Assembly (NCBI RefSeq): GCF_017254845.1
Contig: NZ_JAFKCU010000007.1
Span: 62,001-126,000, forward strand
Reading direction: 5' to 3'
Length of the DNA stretch: 64,000 bases
Origin: Algoriphagus pacificus
GTDB taxonomy: Bacteria; Bacteroidota; Bacteroidia; Cytophagales; Cyclobacteriaceae
Below the pieces are notes generated by a model, which was not told the origin of the DNA, did no database searches, and saw only the letters and a program-made list of their open reading frames with translations. Numbering within the stretch: position 1 is the stretch's first letter; each line of letters starts with the position of its first letter. The translations under genes and the position numbers were made by a program. Shown here in pieces: positions 15,741 to 56,712 of the stretch.

Positions 15741-16082
15741 ATCATTCTATGATTTAATTGTGAAACATGGCAGAAATCTGGAGCTATCTATCTGTAAATC
15801 AAAATGAAAGTGGAATCTATGGAAACAAAGAAAAACTTGAGCATTGTGTAGAAAATATAGACTAAATCCAGCTTAGCTATAGCGTATATGTAAAGGAGCT
15901 ATTAGGATGCATCCCCTTTACTATAGCTTTTCAATCCTTAGGATCTTGTCATGATCTGCAAAATCTGTAAAGCATGCAGTTCTTTTATCCTTTGAGATTT
16001 CGGATTTGTCCTTTGATTTCAATGATAAATCCAATGAACTGGAAAATCGAATCCAAAACTTTTAGGATTGGGAGAAAAAAGC

Positions 16083-18614
16083 ATGTCTCTCTTATTTAGA
16101 TCCCCTCTTATAAATTTTGACATTCATAATTCTGAAGTCATTCAAAAACATTGGCCTGAAATCCTTGAAAGAATTAAGATATCCAGTCAAGATCTTTTTA
16201 AAAGCATTCACAAAAAACTACCGGATCAGCTTTCTGATAAGGAACAAAAGTCAGTTTATAAGTATCTTATAAGAGGGAGATATAGACCCACTCCGTTTGG
16301 AAAATGGGCCGGGGTAGGAATTGCAAATTGGGAAAATGAATTGAGTGAGAGCTCTGAAACTCCATCTGAAAGTTCAGTTGAAGAAATACAAATCAAAGAG
16401 TATAAAGATAATTCGGGGATTTACTGGCTCAACCCTAGTATACAGCCATGGTCGGATGGATGGAGATTTTGGAACTTCGATAGAGAAAAGGAAGTATGGA
16501 GGTACTCAAAAGTCCAAGATGGACCCTTGATTCAAAAACTTAAGGAATTGGCCTTTCATGATCCTGCATTGGACAAAGAACGGGTGCATAAAGCCTTCTC
16601 TGATGTAACGTCCCATGACAAAGAAATCATTTGGGACTACTTGCTTGAAAGTCAGTTACTGGTAAATTATCACAGTGATTCATGGAGCAATCATTCATCG
16701 GAAATATCCATTTTCATTAAATACCAAGCTGCAGTTTCCTTGGGAATAAAAGAAAAAATGGACAAGTTTCTTGATGAAATAGGTCGAATAGCGGTTCATA
16801 ATAATAATGGTTATTTAGACAATCTCACCAAGCGATTTAGGGAAGAATTTGACGACCGATTCGTTCCTCTGAGTTTTCTATGGAAACTGGTTCCATTTCT
16901 TAATAGCCTTGCTGATTATAATCGAGTTAAAACTGGTTCAGACAAGGCTCCAATCATTGTTAAAAACTTAAATGAACGCTCCATTAATTTAAGAGAAATT
17001 GATTCTGGAAATACTCATTTATCTTCAGTCAAGCATAGCCAGGCCCTATTCCGGGTTCTTCAAGATGGAAGAATTTTGATCGACAATCTGGTTTTCAACC
17101 GCCCATTTGTTTACAGTGGAAGGTTTACAAATCATCCGAAAATCCACTCTTATTTTAAAGGCCAAATCCCTGATTTATCTGAGGGTATATTTGCAGATGT
17201 TTTAATTAAGGAAAGTGGAAGGAGCCAATATATATCAAGCCATAAAAGTGTTGTCCAGCACAAGATCATCTGTTTTCAGGGAAGTGTCAACCCATTTGAA
17301 ATAGATAGCCAAGAACTCTTTGTTGGCTTAGGTTCCAAGGGCTTTAAACTGTATAGTCCTAGGCTTGGGAAAGAAATTTTCCCAATTTTTCAACACCCTT
17401 TAAATCCCCAATATATTACTCATCCACTTTGCAGGATGCTGTGGGAAATAGCCCATCAGAATCTTGTCAAACCTATCATTTATGTAAATCCTACTTTCAG
17501 CCTTGCTGATTCCTTGCCGCAATTAAACTGGGATGATATTATTTTACAGCCACGGATGTGGAGAACATCTAAATCATGGGGATTATTAAATGATGGAGAT
17601 ATTTTAAAAAGGATTGAAAAAAGTGAATTGCCAAGAAATGTCTTAATTGGAATCCGTGATCAGGAGTTGGCTTTGGATTTGACTAGCCCAGCTGATAGAA
17701 AACTTTTTTTGGATGAAATTAAATCTAAGGAATCAGTCAGCATCAGTGAATGGCTTTGGTACCCAGATCATGCTGATTCAAAAGTTTCGGAACAATTTCT
17801 ATGGGGGAAAAACACAGCAGCATGGAACAGTCAGCCATTAATTGAATCAGGAATCAACCTATGTCGTCAAATTGATAGCAATTGGATTTGTTTCAAGATA
17901 ATACTAAGTCCGGATTTCCGTAGAGACACTATTTTAGAGCTATTGAAAGGATTTACAATGGACCTTGAATTGGAGGAAATAAGACCCTATTATTTTCTTT
18001 ATTACAGTCTTGAATTGCCAGAAATAAGAGTGAGGATTAAAGCCAGGTCTCCACAACAAAAAGAAATTATATGGTCTAAGCTGTTTTTTTTCTTCTATCC
18101 TGGTTTGGACGTGGACCTTATTAAGCTCCATACCTATTATCCAGAAAATGAAAAGTATGGATTTGAAGATATTGAGATATCAGAAAGACTTTTTTATATG
18201 GAAAGCAAGCTTATTCTTGAACTTAGCCCCAAGGATAATTATCAAAAGCTTTCCATTGCGGTACAGATAGGTGAAATTATCATCAATGGGGATGAACATA
18301 TAGAAAAGTGGATTTCAGTATTAGACCATCGATCAAAAGAAGATTCTTTGGAGTATTTGAATATGGAAGGGTCTATTCTAGAAGCTTTTCTTATTGACAA
18401 AGATTGGCTTTCTAAGTACAGCGCTATTTTAGAAAGGCATTCTTGGGAGAGGAATCCAGAAAAAAGATGGCATTTGTTGGGAAACCATCTCCATATGCTT
18501 GTCAACCGGCTATTTTGGGAAGAGGCTGGAGCAATGGAAGTGGTCGTACACAAGCATTTGACAAGGATACTCAAACGAAGAAAATTTGAAATCAAAAAAT
18601 CCAAAAATCAATGA
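16083..18614 (+). CDS. Lantibiotic dehydratase (LanB-like), orphan
   Basis: An 843-residue protein. The ATG behind GGGAGA is preferred over the TTG at 16068. The N-terminal LanB region carries 'RGRYRPTPFGKWAGVGIANW', the family's TPFG(L/K)xAGV hallmark, and further on 'LQPRMWRTSKSW' and 'LPRNVLIGIRDQELALDL'. The last ~260 residues match the SpaB C-terminal/thiopeptide-type domain (WICFKIIL, YYFLYYSLELPEIRVRIKA). Full LanB enzymes dehydrate Ser/Thr in peptide substrates using glutamyl-tRNA, in the cytoplasm. It is shorter than the ~1000 residues of NisB. No LanC or obvious LanA lies beside it. The stop overlaps the convergent LytTR gene by 7 nt. Confidence 0.85.
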   Translation: MSLLFRSPLINFDIHNSEVIQKHWPEILERIKISSQDLFKSIHKKLPDQLSDKEQKSVYKYLIRGRYRPTPFGKWAGVGIANWENELSESSETPSESSVEEIQIKEYKDNSGIYWLNPSIQPWSDGWRFWNFDREKEVWRYSKVQDGPLIQKLKELAFHDPALDKERVHKAFSDVTSHDKEIIWDYLLESQLLVNYHSDSWSNHSSEISIFIKYQAAVSLGIKEKMDKFLDEIGRIAVHNNNGYLDNLTKRFREEFDDRFVPLSFLWKLVPFLNSLADYNRVKTGSDKAPIIVKNLNERSINLREIDSGNTHLSSVKHSQALFRVLQDGRILIDNLVFNRPFVYSGRFTNHPKIHSYFKGQIPDLSEGIFADVLIKESGRSQYISSHKSVVQHKIICFQGSVNPFEIDSQELFVGLGSKGFKLYSPRLGKEIFPIFQHPLNPQYITHPLCRMLWEIAHQNLVKPIIYVNPTFSLADSLPQLNWDDIILQPRMWRTSKSWGLLNDGDILKRIEKSELPRNVLIGIRDQELALDLTSPADRKLFLDEIKSKESVSISEWLWYPDHADSKVSEQFLWGKNTAAWNSQPLIESGINLCRQIDSNWICFKIILSPDFRRDTILELLKGFTMDLELEEIRPYYFLYYSLELPEIRVRIKARSPQQKEIIWSKLFFFFYPGLDVDLIKLHTYYPENEKYGFEDIEISERLFYMESKLILELSPKDNYQKLSIAVQIGEIIINGDEHIEKWISVLDHRSKEDSLEYLNMEGSILEAFLIDKDWLSKYSAILERHSWERNPEKRWHLLGNHLHMLVNRLFWEEAGAMEVVVHKHLTRILKRRKFEIKKSKNQ

Positions 18615-19348
18615 TCTGAAGAGCTTCCGTTTAGTGAGGCATTTTTTAAGGTTTGAATGAGATCAGCACTGTAGTTTTTTGAAATTGGAATCGAGATATC
18701 AGGATTGATAATCATGCTGTCATATTTTACGGATTGGATCAAACTTGTATTTACAACATAAGATCTGTGAACCCTGCAAAATGTATCCATTGGAAGTTTT
18801 TCCACCAAGGCTGTCAAAGAAGATAGAACCAGGTATTTGCGCTTTGTGGTAAAAATCTCCGCGTAATTTTTATCCTGCTGGATATATTTAATGTCATCGA
18901 TTTTAATAATTGTCAATGTAGCTGATCCATTTTCATTGATTGTCAGATAATCAGGCCTTTTCGTTTCAGTAGATATTACTTGGGGTGATTCCAAAGGCAT
19001 TATTTTTTTAATAGCTTTTAAAAACTCTGAATAGTTTGCCGGCTTCTTAATGAAATCAACTGCGTTTACTTTAAACCCGTCATAGCAAAACTCTTGATAA
19101 CCAGAGCATAGAATCACTGGAATTTTGTGCTTTTCAATAACTTCTGCCAAGTGGATTCCATTCATTTTATCCATCACTATATCCGTAATCAATACATCAG
19201 GAATTTTTGATTCCAATTTTTCCAGAAATTCCAGTGGATCAGTGGTCATGGAGTACAATTCCAAATCCGGTGATATTTCGATAAATCTCTTTAGAACTTG
19301 CAGTGCATCTGATTCATCATCAATCAGTGCTATCTTCATCTTTTTCAT
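18608..19348 (-). CDS. LytTR-family response regulator
   Basis: A 246-residue protein. The receiver domain (residues ~1-120) has the acidic pair IDDES, the phosphoacceptor Asp in 'PDVLITDIVMDKMNG', the switch Ser in 'VILCSG' and Lys in 'VDFIKKP'. The C-terminal LytTR DNA-binding domain (residues ~145-240) contains 'IKYIQQDKNYAEIFT' and 'FCRVHRSYVVN'. It overlaps the histidine kinase gene by 29 nt, so the two form one operon with the kinase first. Position next to the LanB gene suggests control of peptide biosynthesis, which is inference. Confidence 0.92.
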   Translation of the reverse strand: MKKMKIALIDDESDALQVLKRFIEISPDLELYSMTTDPLEFLEKLESKIPDVLITDIVMDKMNGIHLAEVIEKHKIPVILCSGYQEFCYDGFKVNAVDFIKKPANYSEFLKAIKKIMPLESPQVISTETKRPDYLTINENGSATLTIIKIDDIKYIQQDKNYAEIFTTKRKYLVLSSLTALVEKLPMDTFCRVHRSYVVNTSLIQSVKYDSMIINPDISIPISKNYSADLIQTLKNASLNGSSSDH

Positions 19349-20414
19349 AGGGAACTATTAATAAGGTTGAAAATTCATCTTCAGTTTTACTCCATTGAAA
19401 AAAGCCATGGTGTTTATAAAAATGGTTAATGATCCTGGTTAAAGTCTGCAATCCATGACCTGAATGGACTTTGGAAACATTTGGTTTGATCAGATTGAAA
19501 GAGGTGCAAACCAAGTATTTATAGCCATTCTTGGTTTGACATAATTTGATGGTAAGGACTGCAGGATTATTACGATCTGAATATTCCCCGTATTTCAGAA
19601 TATTTTCAATCAAGGTGGCCAAAAGCAGCCTAGGAATTTTAAAATATTCCAATGGAAAATCAGGCTCGATTTGGATTTGGAGATATACTTTTTTTGACTG
19701 CCTTTTAACAAAGAACAGGAGCGTATCAATTATCACTAATTCTTCATCCAAAAAGTGAGGTGCATGGGGATTTTTATATGCCTCCTTCATAAGCGTTGAG
19801 AAAGCAGAAACATGTTGGAACAACTCATCAGAATATATCAGTGATTTACCTGCAATATTATTGAGTGCATTGAACATGAAATGTGGACTCAAACTGAGAT
19901 GGTCATGGGAAATCTGAACTTCGGAAAGCATCAGACGGATTTCGAAGTTCTTTTTGACACCAAGTATAAATTCCCGGAAGCTCCAACAAACCAAAGTGAA
20001 GAAAGCGAAATGCATCAATCTGTAGGTTTCCAAGAGAAAGGCCTCAGATCTGTCCAATATTGAAATCAATTGATTTTGATATAGAATGAGGTATTTCAAT
20101 AAAGACAGAAGCAGTATGATGTCGATCAATTGAATAGAAATGACAGCAAGGTTTTTCTTTCCCTTACAGGAGGGATAGAATTCTAAAAAAAGAAACAGAA
20201 TCAGGGGTATTCCAAAGAAAAAATGCATCAAGGGTATGATGATTTTTAAATCATAGGGAAGGAATAGAGAGGTAATAAAGTCATAAAGAAAATATGCCAG
20301 CCACATTACCAAAACAAAGTGTTTGGGTTTATTAATGATCCAAGAGAAAAGGGCATTAGTCCATTCAAAATGGCTGAATATCAATTTTTTTTGAAAGGCA
20401 TAAGATCGGCTCAT
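19320..20414 (-). CDS. Membrane sensor histidine kinase (LytS/His_kinase type)
   Basis: A 364-residue protein. The N-terminal half has about four transmembrane helices (residues ~30-150) with no separate sensor domain. The His-kinase motif 'SHDHLSLSPHFMFNALNNIAG' contains the phosphorylated His, and the ATP-binding part shows an N-box 'LIENILKYG' and a G-box 'SGHGLQTL'. It is the cognate partner of the LytTR regulator by overlap. A signal sensed at the membrane, perhaps a peptide, is likely but not shown by sequence. Confidence 0.9.
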   Translation of the reverse strand: MSRSYAFQKKLIFSHFEWTNALFSWIINKPKHFVLVMWLAYFLYDFITSLFLPYDLKIIIPLMHFFFGIPLILFLFLEFYPSCKGKKNLAVISIQLIDIILLLSLLKYLILYQNQLISILDRSEAFLLETYRLMHFAFFTLVCWSFREFILGVKKNFEIRLMLSEVQISHDHLSLSPHFMFNALNNIAGKSLIYSDELFQHVSAFSTLMKEAYKNPHAPHFLDEELVIIDTLLFFVKRQSKKVYLQIQIEPDFPLEYFKIPRLLLATLIENILKYGEYSDRNNPAVLTIKLCQTKNGYKYLVCTSFNLIKPNVSKVHSGHGLQTLTRIINHFYKHHGFFQWSKTEDEFSTLLIVPYEKDEDSTD

Positions 20415-44040: not shown

Positions 44041-44409
44041 TCAATCATGTTGCCAGCAATATTTACTTCCTGATGCAGCCTTTCTTGAGCATCTGGATCC
44101 GGCTTTAGTGGTTGCGATGCATTGAGAAGAAGTATTCTGAGTTGTTTTGGTTTCTAGGGTATTGGATTTGGCAGGAGTTGGTGTAGTTGATTTATTCTCT
44201 GTAGCACTTGGCTTGCAGACCAGGCAAGCAGTCAACCCTCTCTTTTTAGCTTCTGTAAGCGTTGCAGCCCAGCCTGTCTTAGCATAGCGACAGGTTTCCT
44301 TATGAAACTTTGCTCCTGTTTTGGTTATATAGACCGTCTGTGCCTGAAGCTGAAAAGCCAGAAAAAAAAGAGCTGTAAATAAGAGTAATTGAAGGGCTTT
44401 CTTTTGCAA
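44041..44409 (-). CDS. Secreted Cys-motif protein, duplicate copy A
   Basis: A 122-residue protein. A signal peptide ends in LQAQ. The mature part has two Cys modules: 'GAKFHKETCRYAKT...LTACLVCKPS' and a C-terminal 'SQCIATTKAGSRCSRKAASGSKYCWQHD' (C-x7-C-x10-C-x2-H), which resembles a small metal-binding finger. They are joined by a Thr/Ser/Pro/Lys-rich linker. It is ~85% identical by eye to the protein at 47168-47539, and the flanking DNA is duplicated as well. Its function is unknown. Confidence 0.7.
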   Translation of the reverse strand: MQKKALQLLLFTALFFLAFQLQAQTVYITKTGAKFHKETCRYAKTGWAATLTEAKKRGLTACLVCKPSATENKSTTPTPAKSNTLETKTTQNTSSQCIATTKAGSRCSRKAASGSKYCWQHD

Positions 44410-47167: not shown

Positions 47168-47539
47168 CTATCCAACATGTTGCCAGCAATATTTACTACC
47201 TGATGCAGCTTTTCTGTAGCATCTGGATCCGGCTTTAGTTGTTGCGATGCATTGAGAAGAAGAATTCTGGGCTTTGTTGGTTTCTGAAGTCTTGGATTTT
47301 GCTGGGGTTGGTGTAGCTGATTTATTATCTGTAGCACTTGGATTGCAGACCAGGCAAGCTGTTAATCCTTTCTTTTTAGCTTCTGTAAGCGTTGCAGCCC
47401 TGCCTGTTTTCGCATAGCGGCAGGTTTCCTTATGATACTTTGCTCCTGTCTTGGTTATATAGACTGCCTGAGCCTGAAGCTGGGCAATCAGAATAAAAAG
47501 AGCTGTAAATAAGAGTAAATGAAGGGCTTTCTTTTGCAA
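47168..47539 (-). CDS. Secreted Cys-motif protein, duplicate copy B
   Basis: A 123-residue paralogue of the 44041-44409 protein with all Cys and the terminal His conserved (TCRYAKT...CLVCNPS; SQCIATTKAGSRCYRKA; YCWQHVG). Differences concentrate in the signal peptide and the linker. The non-coding DNA on both sides is also shared with copy A, so this arose by a segmental duplication of ~550 bp. Both copies have intact frames, arguing for retained function. Confidence 0.7.
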   Translation of the reverse strand: MQKKALHLLLFTALFILIAQLQAQAVYITKTGAKYHKETCRYAKTGRAATLTEAKKKGLTACLVCNPSATDNKSATPTPAKSKTSETNKAQNSSSQCIATTKAGSRCYRKAASGSKYCWQHVG

Positions 47540-48407: not shown

Positions 48408-48641
48408 ATGAAAAAAATCCTAATTTCAGTTTTTTCATTTGCTCTTTTTTCTTTCTATTTTTCCCTTTCAGCAGACGCGGGAACTAAAAAAAGAGTAGAA
48501 TGTAGAACCCTTGATGTCAACGGTATGGTCTTGGCTAATGGAAATCGATGTGATTTCGGTTGGACAGATTGTATCAGCAATGAATGTCCACATCCAGATG
48601 GAACAAGAGTAGAATATGATGGACCTTCTATAGGAGATTAA
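48408..48641 (+). CDS. Small secreted four-Cys peptide
   Basis: A 77-residue peptide with a Sec signal (KKILISVFSFALFSFYFSLSADA) and a ~53-residue mature part with four Cys (VEC...NRC...TDC...NEC), enough for two disulfides. The arrangement of a short secreted peptide followed by a six-bladed beta-propeller lipoprotein resembles NVEALA-type peptide loci of Bacteroidales, though the NVEALA motif itself is absent. A hairpin terminator follows the gene. Its function is unknown. Confidence 0.65.
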   Translation: MKKILISVFSFALFSFYFSLSADAGTKKRVECRTLDVNGMVLANGNRCDFGWTDCISNECPHPDGTRVEYDGPSIGD

Positions 48642-48650
48642 ATAAATAAG

Positions 48651-48685
48651 TTAGGGTGGATCTTTTGATTCACCCTAAAATTTTT
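48651..48685 (+). terminator. Hairpin attenuator between peptide and propeller genes
   Basis: TTAGGGTGGATC/GATTCACCCTAA (one G-T pair) with loop TTTT, followed by AATTTTT. It sits 10 bp after the peptide stop and 11 bp before the propeller start codon. Confidence 0.75.
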
Positions 48686-48695
48686 AACAAGAGAA

Positions 48696-49832
48696 ATGAA
48701 AAAAATATTTAATGTAATTATCATTATTCTGGTTTTTCAAAATTGCTCAATTAAATCCAAAGAGGAAATTGATAATCAGCCAATTGAGTTATTAAAAAAC
48801 ATCCCAAGACCCACTGAGGAAATTGATGAATTATTTAAAATAAACTCAGTAATTTCTCTTAAAAATCCGAACAGCCCTTTATTAGGGGTGACAAGAATAA
48901 TAGAAAACGAATTAGGCTATTTTGTACTTGATAAAACTTCAACTAAAGTTGAAAGGTACGATTTGGATGGAAATTACATACAAAGTTATGGGAATTTTGG
49001 TTCAGGTCCGGGCGAATTTGGATCGGTTTATGATATTTTCATAATCAAAGACAATATTTTTCTTTTTTCACCAGCTGATTTAGCATTATTTTCTTATGAA
49101 ATAGAAACTGGAAATTTTATTAACAAAACAAAATTGGTTGCCTTTCCCCAAAAAATTGAAATAATAAATGATTCGGAATTTTTGATTTATGTTTCAAATA
49201 ATCCTACAGATACTAATTTCAATGTTTATCGATGTGATTTAAATGGCAACTTCCTTCAGGAATATTTCCCATTTGACCCAAATAGATCTTCTTCAATTAT
49301 TATGTACACCGGGTTTTTATCTAAGACCAATGATGGCATCTATTATTGTGATCCTTTTGGGTATAAAATCTACAAATTCAATGCTAAAACCAATGATTTT
49401 GACCTAACATATACACTTGAATTCGTATCAGATATTATAAAGGAAGATCGGGAAAACTTCGATTATTTTACCAGCATGATGCCTATAGCTGAAAATAGAA
49501 TTCGGTTTGGAGGAAGTCAATTCCTTAAAAATGATGAATATATTTTTATGGATTTTACATATGATGCCTACATAAGGTCTGTTTTAATAAACATAAAAGA
49601 TAATTATTCACCGATAGTCCTCGGCAAAAGTGTAAACAATGAATTTCTTAAATTCATAGAAGAACCATTTTCATTATCAAATGAAAATGAACTATTATTT
49701 CCTATTGGACCTGAAAAATTTCAATCATATGCAGACACAGAAAAAACTGGATTAATGAAAGACATCTTCAATATGATCAACATTGATGAAAACAAAGATG
49801 TCCTTTATTTAGTCAAAGCAGAAATCAGATAA
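48696..49832 (+). CDS. Six-bladed beta-propeller lipoprotein
   Basis: A 378-residue protein with lipobox (LVFQNCS). NHL-like blades are visible: 'VERYDLDGNYIQSYGNFGSGPGEFG' is the signature blade of the 6-bladed propeller family of Bacteroidota, followed by 'FNVYRCDLNGNFLQEYFPF' and 'YYCDPFGYKIYKFNAKTNDF'. The lipobox predicts membrane anchoring with the propeller as a binding platform. Transcription is probably shared with the small four-Cys peptide 54 bp upstream, making the peptide a candidate ligand. Confidence 0.75.
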   Translation: MKKIFNVIIIILVFQNCSIKSKEEIDNQPIELLKNIPRPTEEIDELFKINSVISLKNPNSPLLGVTRIIENELGYFVLDKTSTKVERYDLDGNYIQSYGNFGSGPGEFGSVYDIFIIKDNIFLFSPADLALFSYEIETGNFINKTKLVAFPQKIEIINDSEFLIYVSNNPTDTNFNVYRCDLNGNFLQEYFPFDPNRSSSIIMYTGFLSKTNDGIYYCDPFGYKIYKFNAKTNDFDLTYTLEFVSDIIKEDRENFDYFTSMMPIAENRIRFGGSQFLKNDEYIFMDFTYDAYIRSVLINIKDNYSPIVLGKSVNNEFLKFIEEPFSLSNENELLFPIGPEKFQSYADTEKTGLMKDIFNMINIDENKDVLYLVKAEIR

Positions 49833-50273: not shown

Positions 50274-50966
50274 TTAGATACCAGAATTTAATTTGGAAAT
50301 AAAAGATTCAATAGAAATATTTTCTTTGCTCCAAACTTCATTCCATAAGTGAATGCCATATGATTTAGACCAATTTAAATTTTTAATCTTATTATTAAAA
50401 TCATATAAATCAAACCAATTTAAAGGAGCAAAATTTAATGGATTAAAAACATGACAATCCAAATTATAATTATCCAAAACTTTATAAATCAAATTTGAAC
50501 CGAAATCACCCCAAGGTATAACTTCCAACTCATTTAACATTCTCAAGCAATTTTGGACCAAATGTAACATGATTGGATGATCAGCAGAAAAATAAATAAT
50601 AAAATTAGATATTATAAAATCTCCAGAAAGAGTTTTTTCACTTGCAAAAAAAGGAAAATCTAAGGATAAAGTTTTAAATTTTGGAAGACAATAAAAATCA
50701 ATGTCAACCCAGACCCCACCTTTTAAAAATAAAAGTGAATATCTAAAAAGATCAGAAAAAGAAGCTAAAGAATTTTTACTATCATAAAACAAAAAGGATT
50801 CCTTAAGAATTTCATTAGCATCACTTACAATAACTCCATCAGGAATATTGGATATATCACTGTATGTATAAATTTCATATTGAATATCAAGATTTAAAAA
50901 AGAGTTAATGCAGGCCAAATGCATAGAAGACAATTGTTTACCATGCCAAAAGGATTTCACAATCAC
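50274..50966 (-). CDS. DXD glycosyltransferase (Gly_transf_sug type)
   Basis: A 230-residue protein with a GTG start overlapping the preceding stop by 4 nt. The fingerprint of capsule/Gb3-synthase-like transferases is present: 'SFSDLFRYSLLFLKGGVWVDIDFYC', with D72/R75 and the DXD at D88-D90, then 'FPFFASEK' and a C-terminal 'YGIHLWNEVW' (G-x-H-x-W). It probably uses a nucleotide-sugar and Mn2+. It lacks a membrane helix and is cytosolic. It is the last gene of the peptide operon, suggesting the precursor, or a sugar already on it, as acceptor. Confidence 0.8.
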   Translation of the reverse strand: MIVKSFWHGKQLSSMHLACINSFLNLDIQYEIYTYSDISNIPDGVIVSDANEILKESFLFYDSKNSLASFSDLFRYSLLFLKGGVWVDIDFYCLPKFKTLSLDFPFFASEKTLSGDFIISNFIIYFSADHPIMLHLVQNCLRMLNELEVIPWGDFGSNLIYKVLDNYNLDCHVFNPLNFAPLNWFDLYDFNNKIKNLNWSKSYGIHLWNEVWSKENISIESFISKLNSGI

Positions 50967-51679
50967 GATTCTAGAATGAGATTTTTATAGAACAAAGAAA
51001 ACTCCGAATGGGATCTACTTGAAATAGAGGTAGGATGAGTTAAATGATACAGAGGACCAAACTCTCTATAAAGCTTTAAACAAAATTCTTTAATCTTATT
51101 AAATCGATAACCATCTTCAACACCCCATCCATAAAAATCTAAATTTTCCATTCCAATTTTTATATAAGACTCTCTTTTGGCAAAAAACACACCTCCAACT
51201 GGATTTGGCTCAAAGAGCATTTGATATGTACTTTCATATTTCTTTAAAACTAAAAAATCGGAATTAGAAAGAAATAAATCTCGAACTATAAATGATATAT
51301 CATAAAAAGGTCCGGTATAAGGATATACAAAATCTAAATCAAACTTAAACAATCTTTCAAGGGAAAAATTAACTTGACTTGGATCTATTAGGACATCTAC
51401 ATCCCAAATTGCAAGATGAGATGTTGTACAATTTTCTATAAAATGATTAATATAAAAAGTCCTATGTAATACATCATCAAATTCCTGGAAAATAACAACG
51501 TTACAAGAATCTGATATAAAATCTTTAAAAAAACAGGTACCACTAGAACTAATATAGTATAAATAAATCTTAAAAGAAAAATACTTTTTAAGATATTTTA
51601 AAACACAAATAAAATTCTCTACCCGAATAAAAGAATCAGGCTTCAAAATCAAAAGAACAGAAACCATATCATATTTCAT
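50963..51679 (-). CDS. GT-A glycosyltransferase with galactosyltransferase-like C-terminus
   Basis: A 238-residue protein. The start MKYDMVSVLL overlaps the LanC-like stop by 4 nt (ATGA), preferred over the longer frame to 51709. Features: 'IWDVDVLIDP' (DXD at D93-D95), 'VGGVFFAKRESYIKIG' and 'YGWGVEDGYRFNKI' (184-195), the Glyco_transf_7C acceptor-binding pattern. No transmembrane helix is present. It is different in type from the next transferase, so a two-step sugar addition, or addition at two residues, is conceivable. Confidence 0.8.
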   Translation of the reverse strand: MKYDMVSVLLILKPDSFIRVENFICVLKYLKKYFSFKIYLYYISSSGTCFFKDFISDSCNVVIFQEFDDVLHRTFYINHFIENCTTSHLAIWDVDVLIDPSQVNFSLERLFKFDLDFVYPYTGPFYDISFIVRDLFLSNSDFLVLKKYESTYQMLFEPNPVGGVFFAKRESYIKIGMENLDFYGWGVEDGYRFNKIKEFCLKLYREFGPLYHLTHPTSISSRSHSEFSLFYKNLILES

Positions 51680-52659
51680 AAACCAATATTTGAATAAACA
51701 TAAAACCAACCACTTAAACCAAAATAAAAACTAAAATCATTAAAATCCTTACTTAATGAAAAATCCTTTTCTTTAAACACATTCAATTCTGAATTAAAAA
51801 AATTATTATTGGAAAAATACTCATTATTATATAACTGGAAAAGCAAATCTAAATCACAAGCCACTCCGTTATTAAAAGTCAAATTATCAGAACTAACGTT
51901 AATAATGTTTAAAAAATCAAAATCTTTTAATTTATTATAATATAATAAAAATATGTCATCATTAAATAAACTTGAAAAGTTAAAAAAAACATTTCTTAAA
52001 AACAAAACACTTTTATAATTGAAAGGAACAAAAAAACTATTATTATAAATCCAATATTTAAGAATAATTTTAATTTTATTGTGAAACTCGGAAAATGAAC
52101 TAATTTTCAATAACAATTGGAAAAATCTTACTACAACAATAGAATTATTAAATGCCATAAACTCGTATTCTTTCAATTTATTATTTTCAACATAATGGAA
52201 TAAATGATTAAGAAATAAATGAACCAATGCTTTAAATGAAAAATTTAAATATTCAACACATTTTTCAATGCGATGAACAGAATAAGATAAAACAAAAATT
52301 AACTCTTCTAAATTTATAAAGTCTGAATTGAAATGAAGATATTTTTTCAGAAAAAAAAGATCTAATTCTTCTAGTACATTAGCTACATCAAACAAATTAT
52401 TTAATTTATTATAATATCTAGAAAATAAGATAGAAACATTCAAACTAGAATTATAAATATCATAGGAAAAACTTGATTGCTTAATTTTATCTTCTAAAAC
52501 AGTTAAAAATTCTAGCCCTAAAACATCATATTTCTTTTCTGATAAACAATATAAACCTACACCAACAATCCCAGTGTAAAAGTTAAAGCTATCAAAGTCC
52601 ATTAATTTATTAGACAATAAAGTATCAAAAGAGGAACTAGATTTTAAATCAATTATCAT
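51676..52659 (-). CDS. Degenerate LanC-like protein of the peptide operon
   Basis: A 327-residue, all-helical, very AT-rich gene product. The chosen ATG overlaps the transporter stop by 11 nt. Gly-rich helix starts recall the LanC toroid repeats: 'FYTGIVGVGLYCL' near the N-terminus, 'TFNNGVACDLDLLFQL' and 'FYFGLSGWFYVYSNIGL' at the C-terminus. The zinc ligands of true LanC cyclases (W-C-x-G and C-H-G) are missing, so cyclase activity is unlikely. It may be a scaffold or may bind the leader peptide. Assignment is tentative. Confidence 0.5.
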   Translation of the reverse strand: MIIDLKSSSSFDTLLSNKLMDFDSFNFYTGIVGVGLYCLSEKKYDVLGLEFLTVLEDKIKQSSFSYDIYNSSLNVSILFSRYYNKLNNLFDVANVLEELDLFFLKKYLHFNSDFINLEELIFVLSYSVHRIEKCVEYLNFSFKALVHLFLNHLFHYVENNKLKEYEFMAFNNSIVVVRFFQLLLKISSFSEFHNKIKIILKYWIYNNSFFVPFNYKSVLFLRNVFFNFSSLFNDDIFLLYYNKLKDFDFLNIINVSSDNLTFNNGVACDLDLLFQLYNNEYFSNNNFFNSELNVFKEKDFSLSKDFNDFSFYFGLSGWFYVYSNIGL

Positions 52660-54835
52660 TATTGGAGAAATACAATTTATTATAATAAGAACAAGTATCA
52701 ATTAAAATGCTATGAGTACCAAAAGAGATTAATTCAGAATTTTTAAATACCAAAATCATATCAAAGTCCTTAATTAAATTAACTTTATGAGTTATAAAAA
52801 TAAAAGAGATATTTGGGAAATTAGAATAAATATTAGAAAGAATATTCACTTCACTTAAAGAATCAAGTGAAGAAGTTGCTTCATCAAATATTATAATATT
52901 AGGATTATTATATAAAGATCTAGCAATTAGAATCCTTTGTTTTTGTCCCCCGCTCAATTTATAACCAGAATTACCCAACATAGTATTTTCCTTTTCGTTT
53001 AAACTATAAACAAATTCAAAAAAACCAATAATTCTTAATATCTTATCAAATTTCTCCTTTATAAAAGATTCTCCTCTTTTTAAAACAATATTATCTTTCA
53101 AAGAAGCTTCGAAAATATGACCATCTTGATTAACTACACCAATATATTGGTAAATGGATGACAATTTTAAAGATTTAATATTATTACCAAGTAAATTAAT
53201 TTCTCCCTCATAATTTTGAAAGAAACCAAGCATCAGTTTAACAAATGTAGATTTTCCAGAACCACTTTCACCAACTATAGCAATTTTTTTGTTTGAAGGA
53301 ATATTAACACTAACATTTGAAAGGGCATATTCATTATCGATTGAATATTTGAAAGACAAATTAGATATTGTAGCTAAATACTTAGTATTGTCATTTTTAA
53401 TAAGCTCTAAACCGCCTTTTTCCTCAAAATCATTTATATATTTAACTCTATCATAAGAAATTTTAGAATCTTGAAAAGAAGTGGTTAGATTTAAAATTTG
53501 AAAAATAGGTGCACTTAGATTACCAAGAACATACTGGACAGAAAAGTAAACACCAATTGAAAATTTTCCATCAATAACAAAAAAAGCAGCAACAATAGTA
53601 ATAATACTAAAAAAAAACTCCTTAATTACTGATGATCCAAAATCTTGACTCTCCTCAATTTTAAATTTGGCCATACCATTTTTAACAACATTAAATTGAA
53701 TCCTATTCCAATTAGATTCAAAAAAATCAGTTGCATTCGTAATTTTGATATCCTTAATACCTAACAATATATCATTTATAACTTTTTGTTCATTGGAAGA
53801 ATCAGAAAAATTCAAATAATCATTCAGCTTTCTCTTTTTAAAATATCTAAAAATCCATAAAAAATAAAGAATATAAAAAATACATATCAATATAAAAATT
53901 TCTAAACTGTAATAAAGGGCGTATAAACTAAAAACAGTAATGGTAATAAAAGAAAAAAAAGAATCTATTGAAGATTGTGTAGCTAATTTTTGAATTCTAT
54001 TAATATCACGTAGTTTAATAATTAAACTAGAATATTCATTGTTTTGAAAAAAAGAAAATGGCATGCTAATTAGTTTACTCATAAATTTACTAACAAGAGA
54101 AAAATTAAATTTCAACATTAACCTATTAAGATAAAAAGATCTTAAAAATTCAAAGATTCTTCTTCCTAGAAAAATAAAAAAATATCCTGAAGCAAAAAGT
54201 AGTACAATATTATAATTTTTATTTTGAATTCCACTATCAACTATTTTCTGTGAAAAAATCGGAAAAACAAATTGCAATAAAGATGTGATTAAAATAAATA
54301 TAAATAATAATAAAAAATCTTTTTTAAAAGCTTTTATTTCACTATATAGATAAGTGAAAATTGAAAAATGAGAAAAATCAAATTTAAATCTAGAATAAGA
54401 TTTTTTAATTGAGAGGACATTTTCATCTGGTATACATTCTAAACAAAAACCAAAAGAAGAATGGTCCCAAAGCCAAAGATCCGAAAATTCATTCAAATCA
54501 TAATCAATCAATCCAAAAGCAGGATCACAAACAAAGACTTTATTTGAGTTAACTTTATAAACTATAACATAATGATTACCCTTTAAATTAACAATTACAG
54601 GGATTGAAAAATTTTGTATAAAAGAAGAAAGGTCTAATTTATACCAATTACATTTGAAACCTATCTGTTCTCCAATCTTTTTTAGAGAATTCAAATTCAA
54701 ACCATTATAACTTGAAGAGAATTCTATTCTTAAAATATCAAAATCTATTGAAATGGAATAATAATCTGAAATACTTTGAAAACAAGTAACACCACAATCA
54801 TTATTGTCAATTTGCTTATAAAATGGAAATCTCAT
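52649..54835 (-). CDS. Peptidase-containing ABC transporter (C39/PCAT) exporting the peptide
   Basis: A 728-residue protein. The N-terminal C39 peptidase (residues ~1-145) has the catalytic Cys in 'DNNDCGVTCFQSISDYY' (C14), His in 'GNHYVIVYKV' and Asp in 'VFVCDPAFG'. Six transmembrane helices follow (residues ~165-430). The ATPase has 'GESGSGKST', 'LSGGQKQRI' and 'IIIFDEATSSLD'. Family knowledge: PCATs cut leaders after a Gly-Gly and export the core. The gene lies directly behind the precursor gene, separated by a hairpin attenuator. Confidence 0.95.
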   Translation of the reverse strand: MRFPFYKQIDNNDCGVTCFQSISDYYSISIDFDILRIEFSSSYNGLNLNSLKKIGEQIGFKCNWYKLDLSSFIQNFSIPVIVNLKGNHYVIVYKVNSNKVFVCDPAFGLIDYDLNEFSDLWLWDHSSFGFCLECIPDENVLSIKKSYSRFKFDFSHFSIFTYLYSEIKAFKKDFLLLFIFILITSLLQFVFPIFSQKIVDSGIQNKNYNIVLLFASGYFFIFLGRRIFEFLRSFYLNRLMLKFNFSLVSKFMSKLISMPFSFFQNNEYSSLIIKLRDINRIQKLATQSSIDSFFSFITITVFSLYALYYSLEIFILICIFYILYFLWIFRYFKKRKLNDYLNFSDSSNEQKVINDILLGIKDIKITNATDFFESNWNRIQFNVVKNGMAKFKIEESQDFGSSVIKEFFFSIITIVAAFFVIDGKFSIGVYFSVQYVLGNLSAPIFQILNLTTSFQDSKISYDRVKYINDFEEKGGLELIKNDNTKYLATISNLSFKYSIDNEYALSNVSVNIPSNKKIAIVGESGSGKSTFVKLMLGFFQNYEGEINLLGNNIKSLKLSSIYQYIGVVNQDGHIFEASLKDNIVLKRGESFIKEKFDKILRIIGFFEFVYSLNEKENTMLGNSGYKLSGGQKQRILIARSLYNNPNIIIFDEATSSLDSLSEVNILSNIYSNFPNISFIFITHKVNLIKDFDMILVFKNSELISFGTHSILIDTCSYYNKLYFSNNDN

Positions 54836-54854
54836 TAAATTAAAATAAAATAAA

Positions 54855-54879
54855 TTAGGTTGCTATAATAGCAACCTAA
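54855..54879 (-). terminator. Attenuator between precursor and transporter genes
   Basis: A perfect 11-bp stem (TTAGGTTGCTA/TAGCAACCTAA), on the minus strand followed by TTTATTTTATTTT. It is placed 8 bp after the precursor stop and 20 bp before the transporter start. Confidence 0.8.
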
Positions 54880-54886
54880 TACCTTT

Positions 54887-55078
54887 CTAACAATCTAATC
54901 TAGAAGAATTATTCACACAAAAACAATTAAAATTGTTTCGAGGATCAACATTGCAATTTTTACCTAGGCAATAGCCACAGTAGTCGAAAGCACTTAAATT
55001 ACTTCCTCCAGATACAGATTTCAAATCAGATTCAGACAATAACTGAACATTCGGATTGTTTTTAATCTTACTAAACAT
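54887..55078 (-). CDS. Double-glycine precursor peptide with six-Cys core
   Basis: A 63-residue peptide. The leader (residues 1-25) carries 'QLLSESDLKSVSGG', the classical double-glycine signature of C39-processed bacteriocins. The predicted core (residues 26-63, 38 aa) has six Cys in the spacing C-x2-C-x4-C-x9-C-x1-C-x8-C and four Ser but no Thr. Six Cys allow three disulfides, or two plus an S-glycosylated Cys as in sublancin. The setting next to PCAT, a VKOR-thioredoxin and two glycosyltransferases makes it the substrate of the operon. Confidence 0.85.
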   Translation of the reverse strand: MFSKIKNNPNVQLLSESDLKSVSGGSNLSAFDYCGYCLGKNCNVDPRNNFNCFCVNNSSRLDC

Positions 55079-55107
55079 GGTTTTTAAATTAAATAATTAA
55101 ACATATA

Positions 55108-56712
55108 TTAATAGTTGCCGGTCAACTCAACAGAAAATTCCTCCTTTATTCTATTTTCAAAATCGTCTATAAAATATAATATATCATCATATTTGTAATA
55201 AGAGGGAATAGCTTTATTATTAATAATCAATGAAGGGGTTAAATAAATATTATTTTCAAGAAACCAATCAAAGTTATCATTAAAAATAAAATCATTAATT
55301 TGACCATCAGAAGACCATATTTTAATCCATGCATCTACATCTTTTAATTTAACCCAACTTCTGTAAGCAGAAATAAACTTTTCCAAACCATATTTTGAAT
55401 AAATATAATTCAACAACTTAATAACTAATCCCTTAGCATCATTATTCTTATTGCCACTAAAAAATCGAATCTCTAAATTAACCTGTTCTAAAAATGGCTC
55501 AATTTTAAAAAGTAAATTTTCAAACGCCTCCGAACAAGCTTTGCAAGTGGGATTACTTACAAGTACAATATTGATAAGTTTATCTTCTTCTTTACCTGAA
55601 AGAAAAATTCTATTCTCAGAGATAAAGGGGGAAAGCCTTAAAGTAGATTTTATTTTAGAATAAAATATATCAAAATTTCTTCTAATTCCTAAATATTCAA
55701 ATTTATGTTTTATTAATTCCAAATAAGATTTATATACTCTAGAAGAAAAAGTAACCAAAGTAAGTAAAACTAAAAAAACTAAAAGATATAAAAAGGATTC
55801 TTGAATAAAATTAATTTTCAAAAAGGAAAAATCATTCAAAATTAGAAATATTGAAAAATTGATTAAAATCACAAGTGAAATCCATAAACAAAATTTACAA
55901 AAAATATTTAATATGAATTTTTGAACTATAACAGAATAAATAACAACTGGAATAGCAAGAGATAAGAGATACAAAATAATATTATAATTAAAATGAATAA
56001 GAAAAGAAAAAATTAACGTTAAAAAATAACTAACAGCCAAATGAGTAAGTTTAAAATTTAATATTTTTGAATAATCAGAAGATATGACTGCAGCACAATC
56101 AAATTCTTCACTTGTTTTACAGTGATCAAGTTTATTCGTAACCTCTGCCTTTTCAGAATCAAAAAATAAAATAGCAGAAATCAAAAAACCCGATAATAGA
56201 GGAACAAATAATATAAAGCTTTGCCAGGTATTTAAAAATAAATTAAATGCACAAAAAACACTTCCTAAAATAAAAGGTACTATTATCGCAATTTTATTTA
56301 AAGAATAAATTCTTGCTAAACTTTTTTCAGAAAAAGATAAATTTTCCTCGTTTAAAAAAACAAAAACAAAAGAGATTTCTTTATTTAATTGATCAAATTC
56401 ATTCACAGAAATTCTTGAAAAATTCCCAGACTCTTCATAAATGAAAAAATACCCATTTTTTACAGAAACTTTACAAATCTTTTCAAAATCATTATTGAAA
56501 CCAAACATGAAAAATTGCCCCTCTAGCTCCAAAGCATTATCAACTTTGCAAAAAACAGTTTCAATTCCTAATATTTTAAAAAGTTTAAAATAGCGATTAA
56601 TTCCATATACACTTTGAGTTGAATAATAAACATCAAAAAATGTATTTTGTGATATTCTCATTCCAAAATCATTTATAATTTTTGAATGAATAAAAGTACT
56701 TCTAGCATCCAT
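55108..56712 (-). CDS. Membrane VKOR-thioredoxin fusion, disulfide-forming, with C39-like N-terminus
   Basis: A 534-residue protein. Residues ~1-120 resemble a degenerate C39 peptidase domain ('YGINRYFKLFKILGIETVFCKV') lacking a catalytic Cys-His pair. Five or so transmembrane helices form a VKOR module with loop Cys198/Cys206 and CxxC Cys272/Cys275 (FCKFC). Residues ~375-534 are a thioredoxin-like domain with CKAC (390-393) and cis-Pro 'YLTPSLIIN'. It likely oxidises cysteines of the exported peptide at the outer face of the membrane. It is the first gene of the operon. Confidence 0.85.
   Translation of the reverse strand: MDARSTFIHSKIINDFGMRISQNTFFDVYYSTQSVYGINRYFKLFKILGIETVFCKVDNALELEGQFFMFGFNNDFEKICKVSVKNGYFFIYEESGNFSRISVNEFDQLNKEISFVFVFLNEENLSFSEKSLARIYSLNKIAIIVPFILGSVFCAFNLFLNTWQSFILFVPLLSGFLISAILFFDSEKAEVTNKLDHCKTSEEFDCAAVISSDYSKILNFKLTHLAVSYFLTLIFSFLIHFNYNIILYLLSLAIPVVIYSVIVQKFILNIFCKFCLWISLVILINFSIFLILNDFSFLKINFIQESFLYLLVFLVLLTLVTFSSRVYKSYLELIKHKFEYLGIRRNFDIFYSKIKSTLRLSPFISENRIFLSGKEEDKLINIVLVSNPTCKACSEAFENLLFKIEPFLEQVNLEIRFFSGNKNNDAKGLVIKLLNYIYSKYGLEKFISAYRSWVKLKDVDAWIKIWSSDGQINDFIFNDNFDWFLENNIYLTPSLIINNKAIPSYYKYDDILYFIDDFENRIKEEFSVELTGNY

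What the first reader, a model, noticed from the sequence alone, without database searches (positions are those of the whole stretch)
50274..56712. Complete glycocin-like RiPP pathway with two glycosyltransferases and a VKOR-type oxidant
Seen: one strand, tight or overlapping genes in the order VKOR-thioredoxin, double-glycine six-Cys peptide, C39 ABC exporter, LanC-like protein, DXD glycosyltransferase, second DXD glycosyltransferase. Known: sublancin-type glycocin loci combine a precursor, a PCAT, thiol oxidoreductases and an S- or O-glycosyltransferase. Inference: this is a Bacteroidota counterpart making an exported, disulfide-bonded, glycosylated peptide. The two unlike transferases, the single fused oxidase and the LanC-like protein distinguish it from the described loci.
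Basis: partly seen in the sequence, partly recalled or inferred. Interest (0 to 1): 0.92.

Follow-up and report, generated by a model that had tools for sequence, protein, structure and literature searches.

The report
Predicted sugar-decorated disulfide peptide pathway
A compact gene set that probably makes, disulfide-bonds, sugar-coats and exports a small cysteine-rich peptide; it belongs to a widespread but unstudied Bacteroidota family rather than to the known glycocins, and comparison with relatives points to the peptide's first serine as the likely sugar site.

Summary
The six genes exist as described, in a 6.4-kb block of 24% G+C (rest of window 37.5%). Not a glycocin by the tests run: no SunS-family match, and six Cys spaced 2,4,9,1,8. 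It is a diverged member of a Bacteroidota cassette found twice more in this genome: VKOR-thioredoxin fusion, Cys-rich GG-leader precursor, C39 exporter, and a LanC-fold protein without zinc ligands paired with a GT7C-like glycosyltransferase (68 of 81 loci). The second transferase's two strong relatives found independently sit beside peptide exporters; three of eight weak ones inspected look polysaccharide-related. New: cores from loci with the pair begin with Ser/Thr in 22 of 30 cases, against 1 of 25 from loci without it; homologous cores differ there (Ser versus Tyr). Best reading: an exported, disulfide-bonded peptide O-glycosylated near its N-terminus, with the LanC-like protein as substrate-binding partner and the second transferase adding another sugar. 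Sugar, site and activity are untested, and few independent evolutionary switches underlie the Ser signal. A Bacteroidales radical-SAM version is in print, so this is a new variant of a known, uncharacterised kind.

The parts
55108..56712 (-). Membrane disulfide oxidase: degenerate C39-like N-terminal region, VKOR domain, C-terminal thioredoxin-like domain (534 aa)
   Evidence: Pfam VKOR 42.8 bits, Thioredoxin_4 weak and below its cut-off; redox cysteines aligned with two paralogues; the two paralogues' N-termini hit Peptidase_C39 over cut-off (43.4 and 45.6 bits), the window copy does not
54887..55078 (-). Precursor peptide, 63 aa: 25-aa leader ending in GG, 38-aa core SNLSAFDYCGYCLGKNCNVDPRNNFNCFCVNNSSRLDC
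   Evidence: ORF; GG-leader, Cys-rich precursors lie in the same kind of locus in relatives
54854..54880 (.). Perfect 13-nt inverted repeat with 1-nt loop between precursor and exporter; possible attenuator or mRNA-stabilising hairpin
52649..54835 (-). Peptidase-containing ABC exporter (PCAT) that should cut after GG and export
   Evidence: Pfam Peptidase_C39, ABC_membrane, ABC_tran; DCG Cys, HYV His, Walker A and LSGGQ present (motif names recalled)
51676..52659 (-). LanC-fold protein without the zinc ligands (327 aa), proposed substrate-binding partner of the transferase
50963..51679 (-). GT7C-like GT-A glycosyltransferase (238 aa), WDVD and GWGVED motifs, proposed first peptide O-glycosyltransferase
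   Evidence: Pfam Glyco_transf_7C in 32 of 32 family members; model pLDDT 92.2, matches chondroitin synthase, GalNAc-T2, beta4GalT7
50274..50966 (-). Second, unrelated DXD glycosyltransferase (Gly_transf_sug/Caps_synth type, 230 aa), proposed to extend the sugar or act at a second site
   Evidence: Pfam; DXD and HxWN conserved in 7 aligned members; strong relatives seen only in peptide-export loci among those inspected

Best explanation
The operon makes a glycosylated, disulfide-bonded secreted peptide of a Bacteroidota family distinct from glycocins. Proposed order: (1) the 63-aa precursor is made; (2) in the cytoplasm the LanC-fold protein, no longer a cyclase, holds the precursor or its core and the GT7C-like enzyme puts a sugar on a hydroxyl near the core N-terminus, most likely Ser1; (3) the Gly_transf_sug enzyme adds a second sugar, on the first or elsewhere; (4) the PCAT cuts after GG and exports; (5) the VKOR-thioredoxin protein makes up to three disulfides at the membrane. 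Shown: genes, folds, motifs, conserved neighbourhoods, the Ser1 correlation. Inferred: glycosylation, site, order, role of the LanC-like protein, and a competitive (bacteriocin-like) function.
For: Same module at two further sites in this genome. With the three own loci, 68 of 81 have the LanC-like gene within 1.5 kb, 45 a PCAT, 27 a VKOR fusion, 42 a Cys-rich GG precursor; in the 41 with at least 8 kb on both sides: 37, 27, 18, 28. A LanC-profile search of 395 genomes gave two strong non-own loci (G345, G369), both with the GT7C gene beside it; three weak ones (29-51 bits) have none. GT folds and motifs intact. Second GT: 2 of 2 strong non-own hits in 148 family genomes are beside PCAT and HlyD genes, in genomes without the GT7C gene. 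Ser/Thr at core +1: 22 of 30 with the pair versus 1 of 25 without; in 22 homologous core pairs 13 have Ser/Thr only with the pair, 0 only without, 9 do not differ. Of the 16 genomes with pair-less loci, 15 were searched for the transferase: 14 lack it; the exception, G090, has it at another locus, which, fetched afterwards, has a Ser+1 precursor.
Against: No biochemical evidence. 13 of 81 GT7C loci lack a LanC-like gene within 1.5 kb, though in some (L052, L195) it lies elsewhere in the locus. 8 of the 30 pair-associated cores lack Ser/Thr at +1; in the radical-SAM loci Ser/Thr at +1 is only 5 of 20. Ser1 may reflect descent: PCATs of the Cyclobacterium/Pleomorphovibrio loci with the pair are sister to pair-less ones (support 84/85), so only one or two independent switches are seen, and cores and pairs are not independent. 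The window's proteins are far diverged (exporter at most 35% identical to those in the tree; LanC-like 13-20%), so rules from relatives may not carry over. No HlyD in the operon. Foldseek's best LanC hit is only E 0.022, and the weakest LanC rows tie with sugar epimerases. Paralogues' precursors resemble, below cut-off, a family NCBI names radical-SAM-modified (TIGR04149).
Confidence: 0.55

Rival explanations
1. True glycocin: SunS-like S- or O-glycosylation of a helical-hairpin peptide with two nested disulfides.
For: Same general parts list: GG precursor, PCAT, thiol oxidase, glycosyltransferase.
Against: No NCBIfam hit for either transferase at E up to 1; no SunS match over cut-off in the genome, while one of 14 control genomes is over it. 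Six Cys spaced 2,4,9,1,8, whereas glycocins characterised before thermoglycocin have five (PMC12457901, passages seen).
Confidence: 0.05
2. Unmodified or only disulfide-bonded class II-like bacteriocin (bacteroidetocin-like); the LanC-like and GT genes serve another pathway.
For: Thiol oxidoreductase, GG peptide and peptidase exporter are part of the bacteroidetocin set (PMC6671954, passages seen); 16 of 19 VKOR loci examined in the same family lack the LanC-like/GT pair.
Against: Overlapping start/stop junctions couple PCAT, LanC-like and both GTs; the LanC-like/GT pair recurs with such precursors across Bacteroidota and their first core residue changes with it.
Confidence: 0.2
3. Lanthipeptide: Ser/Thr dehydrated by a LanB acting in trans and cyclised by the LanC-like protein, then glycosylated.
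For: LanC fold; the genome holds four full-length LanB-family genes, one in this window at 16068-18614.
Against: Zinc ligands not conserved in the family; in the stretches read (window; L138-L140) the LanB genes sit by two-component genes with no LanC-like hit or GG precursor recognised; the core has only four Ser and no Thr, and an oxidase is encoded.
Confidence: 0.03
4. The two transferases glycosylate a cell-surface acceptor or a carrier lipid, giving self-immunity or a receptor, not the peptide.
For: Both families also occur in polysaccharide synthesis (Pfam names); no immunity gene was recognised.
Against: No lipid-carrier or flippase gene among the six; GT7C pairs with a LanC fold; Ser1 shift in the precursors.
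Confidence: 0.12

Closest known systems
Bacteroidales RiPP BGC3-type clusters (radical SAM + pseudo-rSAM + LanC-like + glycosyltransferase), PMC10352776
   Same: LanC-like protein lacking the zinc motif, glycosyltransferase, GG-type precursor; in silico only (passages seen)
   Different: That cluster has radical SAM enzymes and no PCAT; here no radical SAM, but PCAT, fused VKOR-thioredoxin and a second unrelated transferase. 22 of the 81 loci have the radical SAM within the stretch searched
Bacteroidetocins (class IIf), PMC6671954
   Same: GG peptide, thiol oxidoreductase, peptidase-ABC exporter, Bacteroidota
   Different: Leader 15-16 aa, four Cys in bacteroidetocins A and B; 25-aa leader and six Cys here; their core regions are described with a TM protein, and the passages seen name no glycosyltransferase or LanC-like protein
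Glycocins (sublancin, glycocin F, thermoglycocin; PMC12457901, passages seen)
   Same: Works like: PCAT plus thiol oxidoreductase plus glycosyltransferase
   Different: SunS-family match and the glycocin cysteine count not found here; other GT families, LanC-like partner
Class I lanthipeptides of Bacteroidetes with LxLxKx5L-GG leaders (PMC7268733, passages seen)
   Same: Relatives' leaders (e.g. MKKLSLGKLKLASEEVLQRSQLASIYGG) resemble that motif; LanC fold
   Different: No LanB in the locus, no zinc site; the window's own leader does not show the motif clearly

Membership tests
Glycocin | SunS-type peptide glycosyltransferase (TIGR04195) | tested here: not met
   No NCBIfam match at E<=1 for either transferase; best in genome 24.7 bits, cut-off 350 (over cut-off in 1 of 14 control genomes)
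Glycocin | Nested disulfides on a helical hairpin, five Cys (two disulfides + one further Cys) | tested here: not met
   Six Cys, spacing 2,4,9,1,8; definition from PMC12457901 passages and recall; the disulfide map itself was not testable
Glycocin | GG leader with PCAT and dedicated thiol oxidoreductase | tested here: met
   (VKOR fusion instead of thioredoxin pair)
Glycocin | Sugar on Ser or Cys of the core | not testable with these tools
   needs mass spectrometry
Bacteroidetocin (class IIf) | GG peptide with thiol oxidoreductase and peptidase-ABC exporter | tested here: met
   set as described in PMC6671954
Bacteroidetocin (class IIf) | 15-16 aa leader | tested here: not met
   25-aa leader
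Bacteroidetocin (class IIf) | sequence similarity of the mature peptide | not tested
   bacteroidetocin sequences were not fetched
Lanthipeptide | Dehydratase (LanB/LanM/kinase-lyase) in the locus | tested here: not met
   none among the locus proteins; LanB-family genes only at four other sites plus one truncated
Lanthipeptide | LanC with Cys/Cys-His zinc ligands | tested here: not met
   no Cys column above 32%; 0 of 44 members have C[HY]G, 6 of 44 have any CH dipeptide
LanC-like fold | alpha/alpha toroid of LanC | tested here: met
LanC-like/GT7C cassette of Bacteroidota (this work) | LanC-like gene beside GT7C-like gene with GG Cys-rich precursor | tested here: met

The most novel reading that the evidence does not exclude
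A distinct, widespread class of Bacteroidota secreted glycopeptides: disulfide-rich miniproteins whose first residue carries an O-linked sugar or short glycan, installed by a GT7C-like transferase working with a LanC pseudo-cyclase, and elaborated by a variable second transferase (Gly_transf_sug here; GT2 or GT4 types elsewhere; about 20 of 81 loci, 29 if a DUF3405/DUF707 cluster is counted). The N-terminal sugar would shield or target the peptide.
Probability: 0.4. Interest if true: 0.82.

Novelty: new variant of a known kind. Interest (0 to 1): 0.62.

Why it matters
Experimentally known bacterial glycopeptide bacteriocins are few and, as far as recalled, from Gram-positives. A Bacteroidota family with a different transferase type, a repurposed LanC scaffold and a sequence-predicted acceptor residue would give a new enzymatic route to O-glycosylated disulfide peptides, help explain why Bacteroidota have LanC-like genes with neither dehydratase nor zinc site, and supply a directly testable site (Ser1).

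Tried and rejected
Single-protein searches for the window LanC-like protein gave nothing beyond itself in 148 family genomes and nothing in viral contigs; the precursor alone gave one weak hit in G046 (E 0.0086, an internal stop, no exporter recognised by eye among the ORFs of that stretch), rejected as chance. PADLOC gave no match for the five proteins given; PHROGs gave two families of unknown function, one for each transferase. The LanM search was uninformative because the control set was silent. NCBIfam matches of the paralogues' LanC-like proteins (LanKC, LanM), GT (TIGR04440) and precursors (TIGR04149, 16-22 bits, cut-off 25) all stayed below cut-off. The PCAT tree could not place the window exporter (end branch 10, odd composition). 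Foldseek alone did not rank LanC proteins significantly (best E 0.022); the LanC assignment rests on VIA-align and the family Pfam hits. An S-glycosylation idea from odd Cys counts was dropped: 50 of 70 cores have an even number. The 48408-49832 genes (small secreted protein, beta-propeller) were considered and left out of the system: opposite strand, and 27-28% G+C rather than 22-25%.

Rows dropped and limits: 15 of the 16 pair-less VKOR loci were used (L185, without a precursor, left out); itself covered 19 of the 40 matches listed, chosen mostly by score. The 25 control cores include one doubtful ORF (L182, core starting YPRLP); searches used slightly different precursor filters (30 and 25 cores; 31 and 27). 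G048 was not among the genomes searched. Radical SAM and accessory-transferase clusters are BLAST-linked groups of which one or a few members were scanned with Pfam, so their counts are approximate; the 20 of 81 is my own subtraction from the sets. In some loci of the 81 the contig ends near the transferase, so absences there mean little; some loci come from one genome. The polysaccharide label of L129-L131 is my reading of ORF starts, not a Pfam result, and covers 3 of 8 weak hits. Statements of absence in print rest on searches of a partial open-access library; papers were seen as passages (PMC10352776, PMC6671954, PMC7268733, PMC12457901) or as listings only.
Full report
1. What is there. 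The window lies in a 5.28-Mb assembly; the named relatives with the closest GT7C genes are Algoriphagus (no tool names the organism itself). Six genes run on the minus strand from 56712 to 50274: a VKOR-thioredoxin fusion, a 63-aa GG-leader precursor with a 38-aa six-Cys core, a C39-peptidase ABC exporter (PCAT), a LanC-like protein, a GT7C-like transferase and a Gly_transf_sug/Caps_synth transferase. The last four overlap at their start/stop codons (ATGATAATTGA, ATGA and GTGA). A perfect 13-nt hairpin lies between precursor and exporter. The block is 24.0% G+C against 37.5% for the rest of the window; none of 440 other 6.4-kb windows is below 32.4%, and the two paralogous loci are about 32% (profile). 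This suggests horizontal origin (inference).

2. The same module twice more. A C39 search of the own genome gave five places. Two fetched regions each hold: C39-like/VKOR/thioredoxin fusion, GG Cys-rich precursor(s), beta-propeller lipoprotein, PCAT, HlyD, LanC-like and GT7C-like genes. The window's LanC-like protein is 17-20% identical to these two (20-23% in the three-row alignment), its GT7C 34-35%, its VKOR 26-27% with the redox cysteines aligned. The window operon lacks HlyD; those of the other two loci could serve in trans (inference).

3. How general. In a sample of 395 genomes of the phylum the LanC profile matched 6 genomes and the GT7C profile 5. Besides the own loci, the two strong LanC hits (G345, G369) have the GT7C gene beside them; the three weak LanC hits (29-51 bits) do not. 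A scan of GTDB contigs with a seven-row GT7C alignment kept the best 80 of 85 matches, 78 distinct loci. Over these 78 plus the three own loci, 68 of 81 have the LanC-like gene within 1.5 kb, 45 a PCAT, 34 an HlyD, 27 a VKOR fusion, 42 a GG precursor with at least three Cys, 22 a radical SAM, 6 the second transferase; in the 41 with 8 kb on both sides: 37, 27, 23, 18, 28, 15, 3. So the two-transferase set of the window is one version of a recurrent pattern: about 20 of 81 loci carry a further transferase (the Gly_transf_sug type, GT2 or GT4), 29 with a DUF3405/DUF707 cluster.

4. The second transferase. Relatives sit near the pair in A. alkaliphilus (two copies), A. aestuarii, A. ratkowskyi, an Algoriphagus MAG and a Bacteroidales MAG. 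As a test not conditioned on the pair, 148 family genomes were searched: 11 match; besides the own copy, two are strong (309 and 266 bits) and eight weak (30-47 bits). Both strong ones lie beside PCAT and HlyD genes (L127, also near a GG precursor, an ATP-grasp protein and a SPASM-domain protein; L128), in genomes with no GT7C match. Three of the eight weak ones were inspected and lie in what read as polysaccharide loci. DXD and HxWN residues are conserved; the remote solved relatives are SetA and Och1.

6. The GT7C-like enzyme. High-confidence GT-A model (pLDDT 92.2). The best structural neighbours are a Leptospira glycosyltransferase, chondroitin polymerase/synthase, polypeptide GalNAc-transferases, WrtF and, lower, beta4GalT7, all within a narrow range of Z (18.0-15.6), so donor and stereochemistry cannot be read off. 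Sequence profile: beta4GalT7 8.7e-7. Invariant W92, D95, GWG and D189 argue for activity. One relative locus (L195) has a UDP-galactopyranose mutase gene next to the transferase, a hint that galactofuranose is used there.

7. A clue to the acceptor. Within the family, 19 VKOR loci of the 40 matches were fetched; 3 have the LanC-like/GT7C pair, 16 do not. Cores from pair-less loci (15 used) begin with Tyr in 18 of 25 and with Ser/Thr in 1; cores from 16 Cyclobacteriaceae-type loci with the pair (15 of which gave a core) begin with Ser/Thr in 22 of 30 (Fisher p 8e-8 per core; per locus 14 of 15 against 1 of 13, p 8e-6). Aligning cores without their first four residues gives 22 homologous pairs across the divide: 13 have Ser/Thr only in the pair-bearing locus, 2 in both, 7 in neither, 0 only in the pair-less one. 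Of the 16 genomes with pair-less loci, 15 were searched for the transferase and 14 lack it; the exception, G090, has it at another locus, and that locus, fetched afterwards, has a precursor with Ser at +1. The single control core with Ser+1 comes from G045, which has the second transferase on another contig. Limits: few independent switches (the Cyclobacterium/Pleomorphovibrio exporters with the pair are sister to pair-less ones at support 84/85), so the p values overstate the case; 8 of 30 do not fit; in the radical-SAM loci only 5 of 20 fit. The window core begins S-N-L-S, so Ser1 (or Ser4) is the predicted site; with six Cys, three disulfides would leave no free Cys.

8. Proposed working. 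Precursor is bound by the LanC-fold protein, glycosylated at the core N-terminus by the GT7C-like enzyme, elaborated by the second transferase, cut after GG and exported by the PCAT, and oxidised by the VKOR-thioredoxin protein. The VKOR paralogues' N-termini match Peptidase_C39 without the DCG arrangement seen in the PCATs (sequence), so this region may be a leader-binding domain that brings the oxidase to the precursor (inference; the window copy is too diverged to match).

9. Compared with the known. It works like a glycocin pathway but fails two defining tests (SunS model, cysteine layout). It shares bacteroidetocin parts (PMC6671954) but not the leader length. It is nearest to the LanC-like plus glycosyltransferase clusters of Bacteroidales (PMC10352776), in a radical-SAM-free form with disulfide oxidase and exporter. 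I found no paper on the form seen here in eight searches of the library; the library is partial and the hits were seen as listings or passages.

10. Verdict. A real, coherent pathway; glycosylation probable, not shown. New variant of a known but experimentally blank kind; interest 0.62, chiefly for the LanC pseudo-cyclase/transferase pair and the Ser1 prediction.

Noticed in passing
window 16068-18614 (+), with 18608-20414 (-): LanB-type dehydratase homologue (848 aa; Lant_dehydr_N) beside a response regulator and a histidine kinase (named by eye, LytTR-like), without LanC or precursor recognised; three more full-length copies in the genome with the same kind of neighbours (L138, L139, L140) and one truncated copy close to IS21-like genes (by eye) in L141.
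   Followed up: partly
window 48408-49832 (+): Small Cys-containing secreted protein followed by a 6-bladed beta-propeller protein (DUF5128), next to the low-GC block; propeller genes also lie inside the two paralogous peptide loci.
   Followed up: no
window 44041-44409 and 47168-47539 (-): Two very similar small secreted proteins (122 and 123 aa, both starting MQKKAL), 3 kb apart; probably a duplication.
   Followed up: no
window 54890-55003, core of the precursor; L091:14311-14544; L060:12513-12704: Cys spacings recall eukaryotic miniprotein scaffolds: window 2-4-9-1-8 (EGF-like), L091 8-3-11-15-1 (CS-alpha-beta defensin-like), L060 4-5-0-6-4 (knottin-like). Patterns recalled, not tested.
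   Followed up: no
L195:5335-6453 (-): UDP-galactopyranose mutase gene next to a GT7C/PCAT peptide locus, suggesting galactofuranose as donor there.
   Followed up: partly
L106, L108, L110 (Bacteroides fragilis and relative), about 6.9-10.7 kb: GT7C gene with a short LanC-like gene beside a nucleotidyltransferase-like and a LicD-like gene (named by eye), hinting at phosphocholine-type decoration.
   Followed up: no
L127 (G015): The Gly_transf_sug transferase also occurs in a locus with an ATP-grasp protein, a SPASM-domain protein, a GG precursor and a PCAT, i.e. in a grasp-with-SPASM-like setting.
   Followed up: partly
L196:14219-15607 (-), G045: VKOR-fusion gene in three pieces, on the same contig as, and over 20 kb from, a PCAT/HlyD/Gly_transf_sug locus (L128): possibly a decaying peptide locus.
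   Followed up: no
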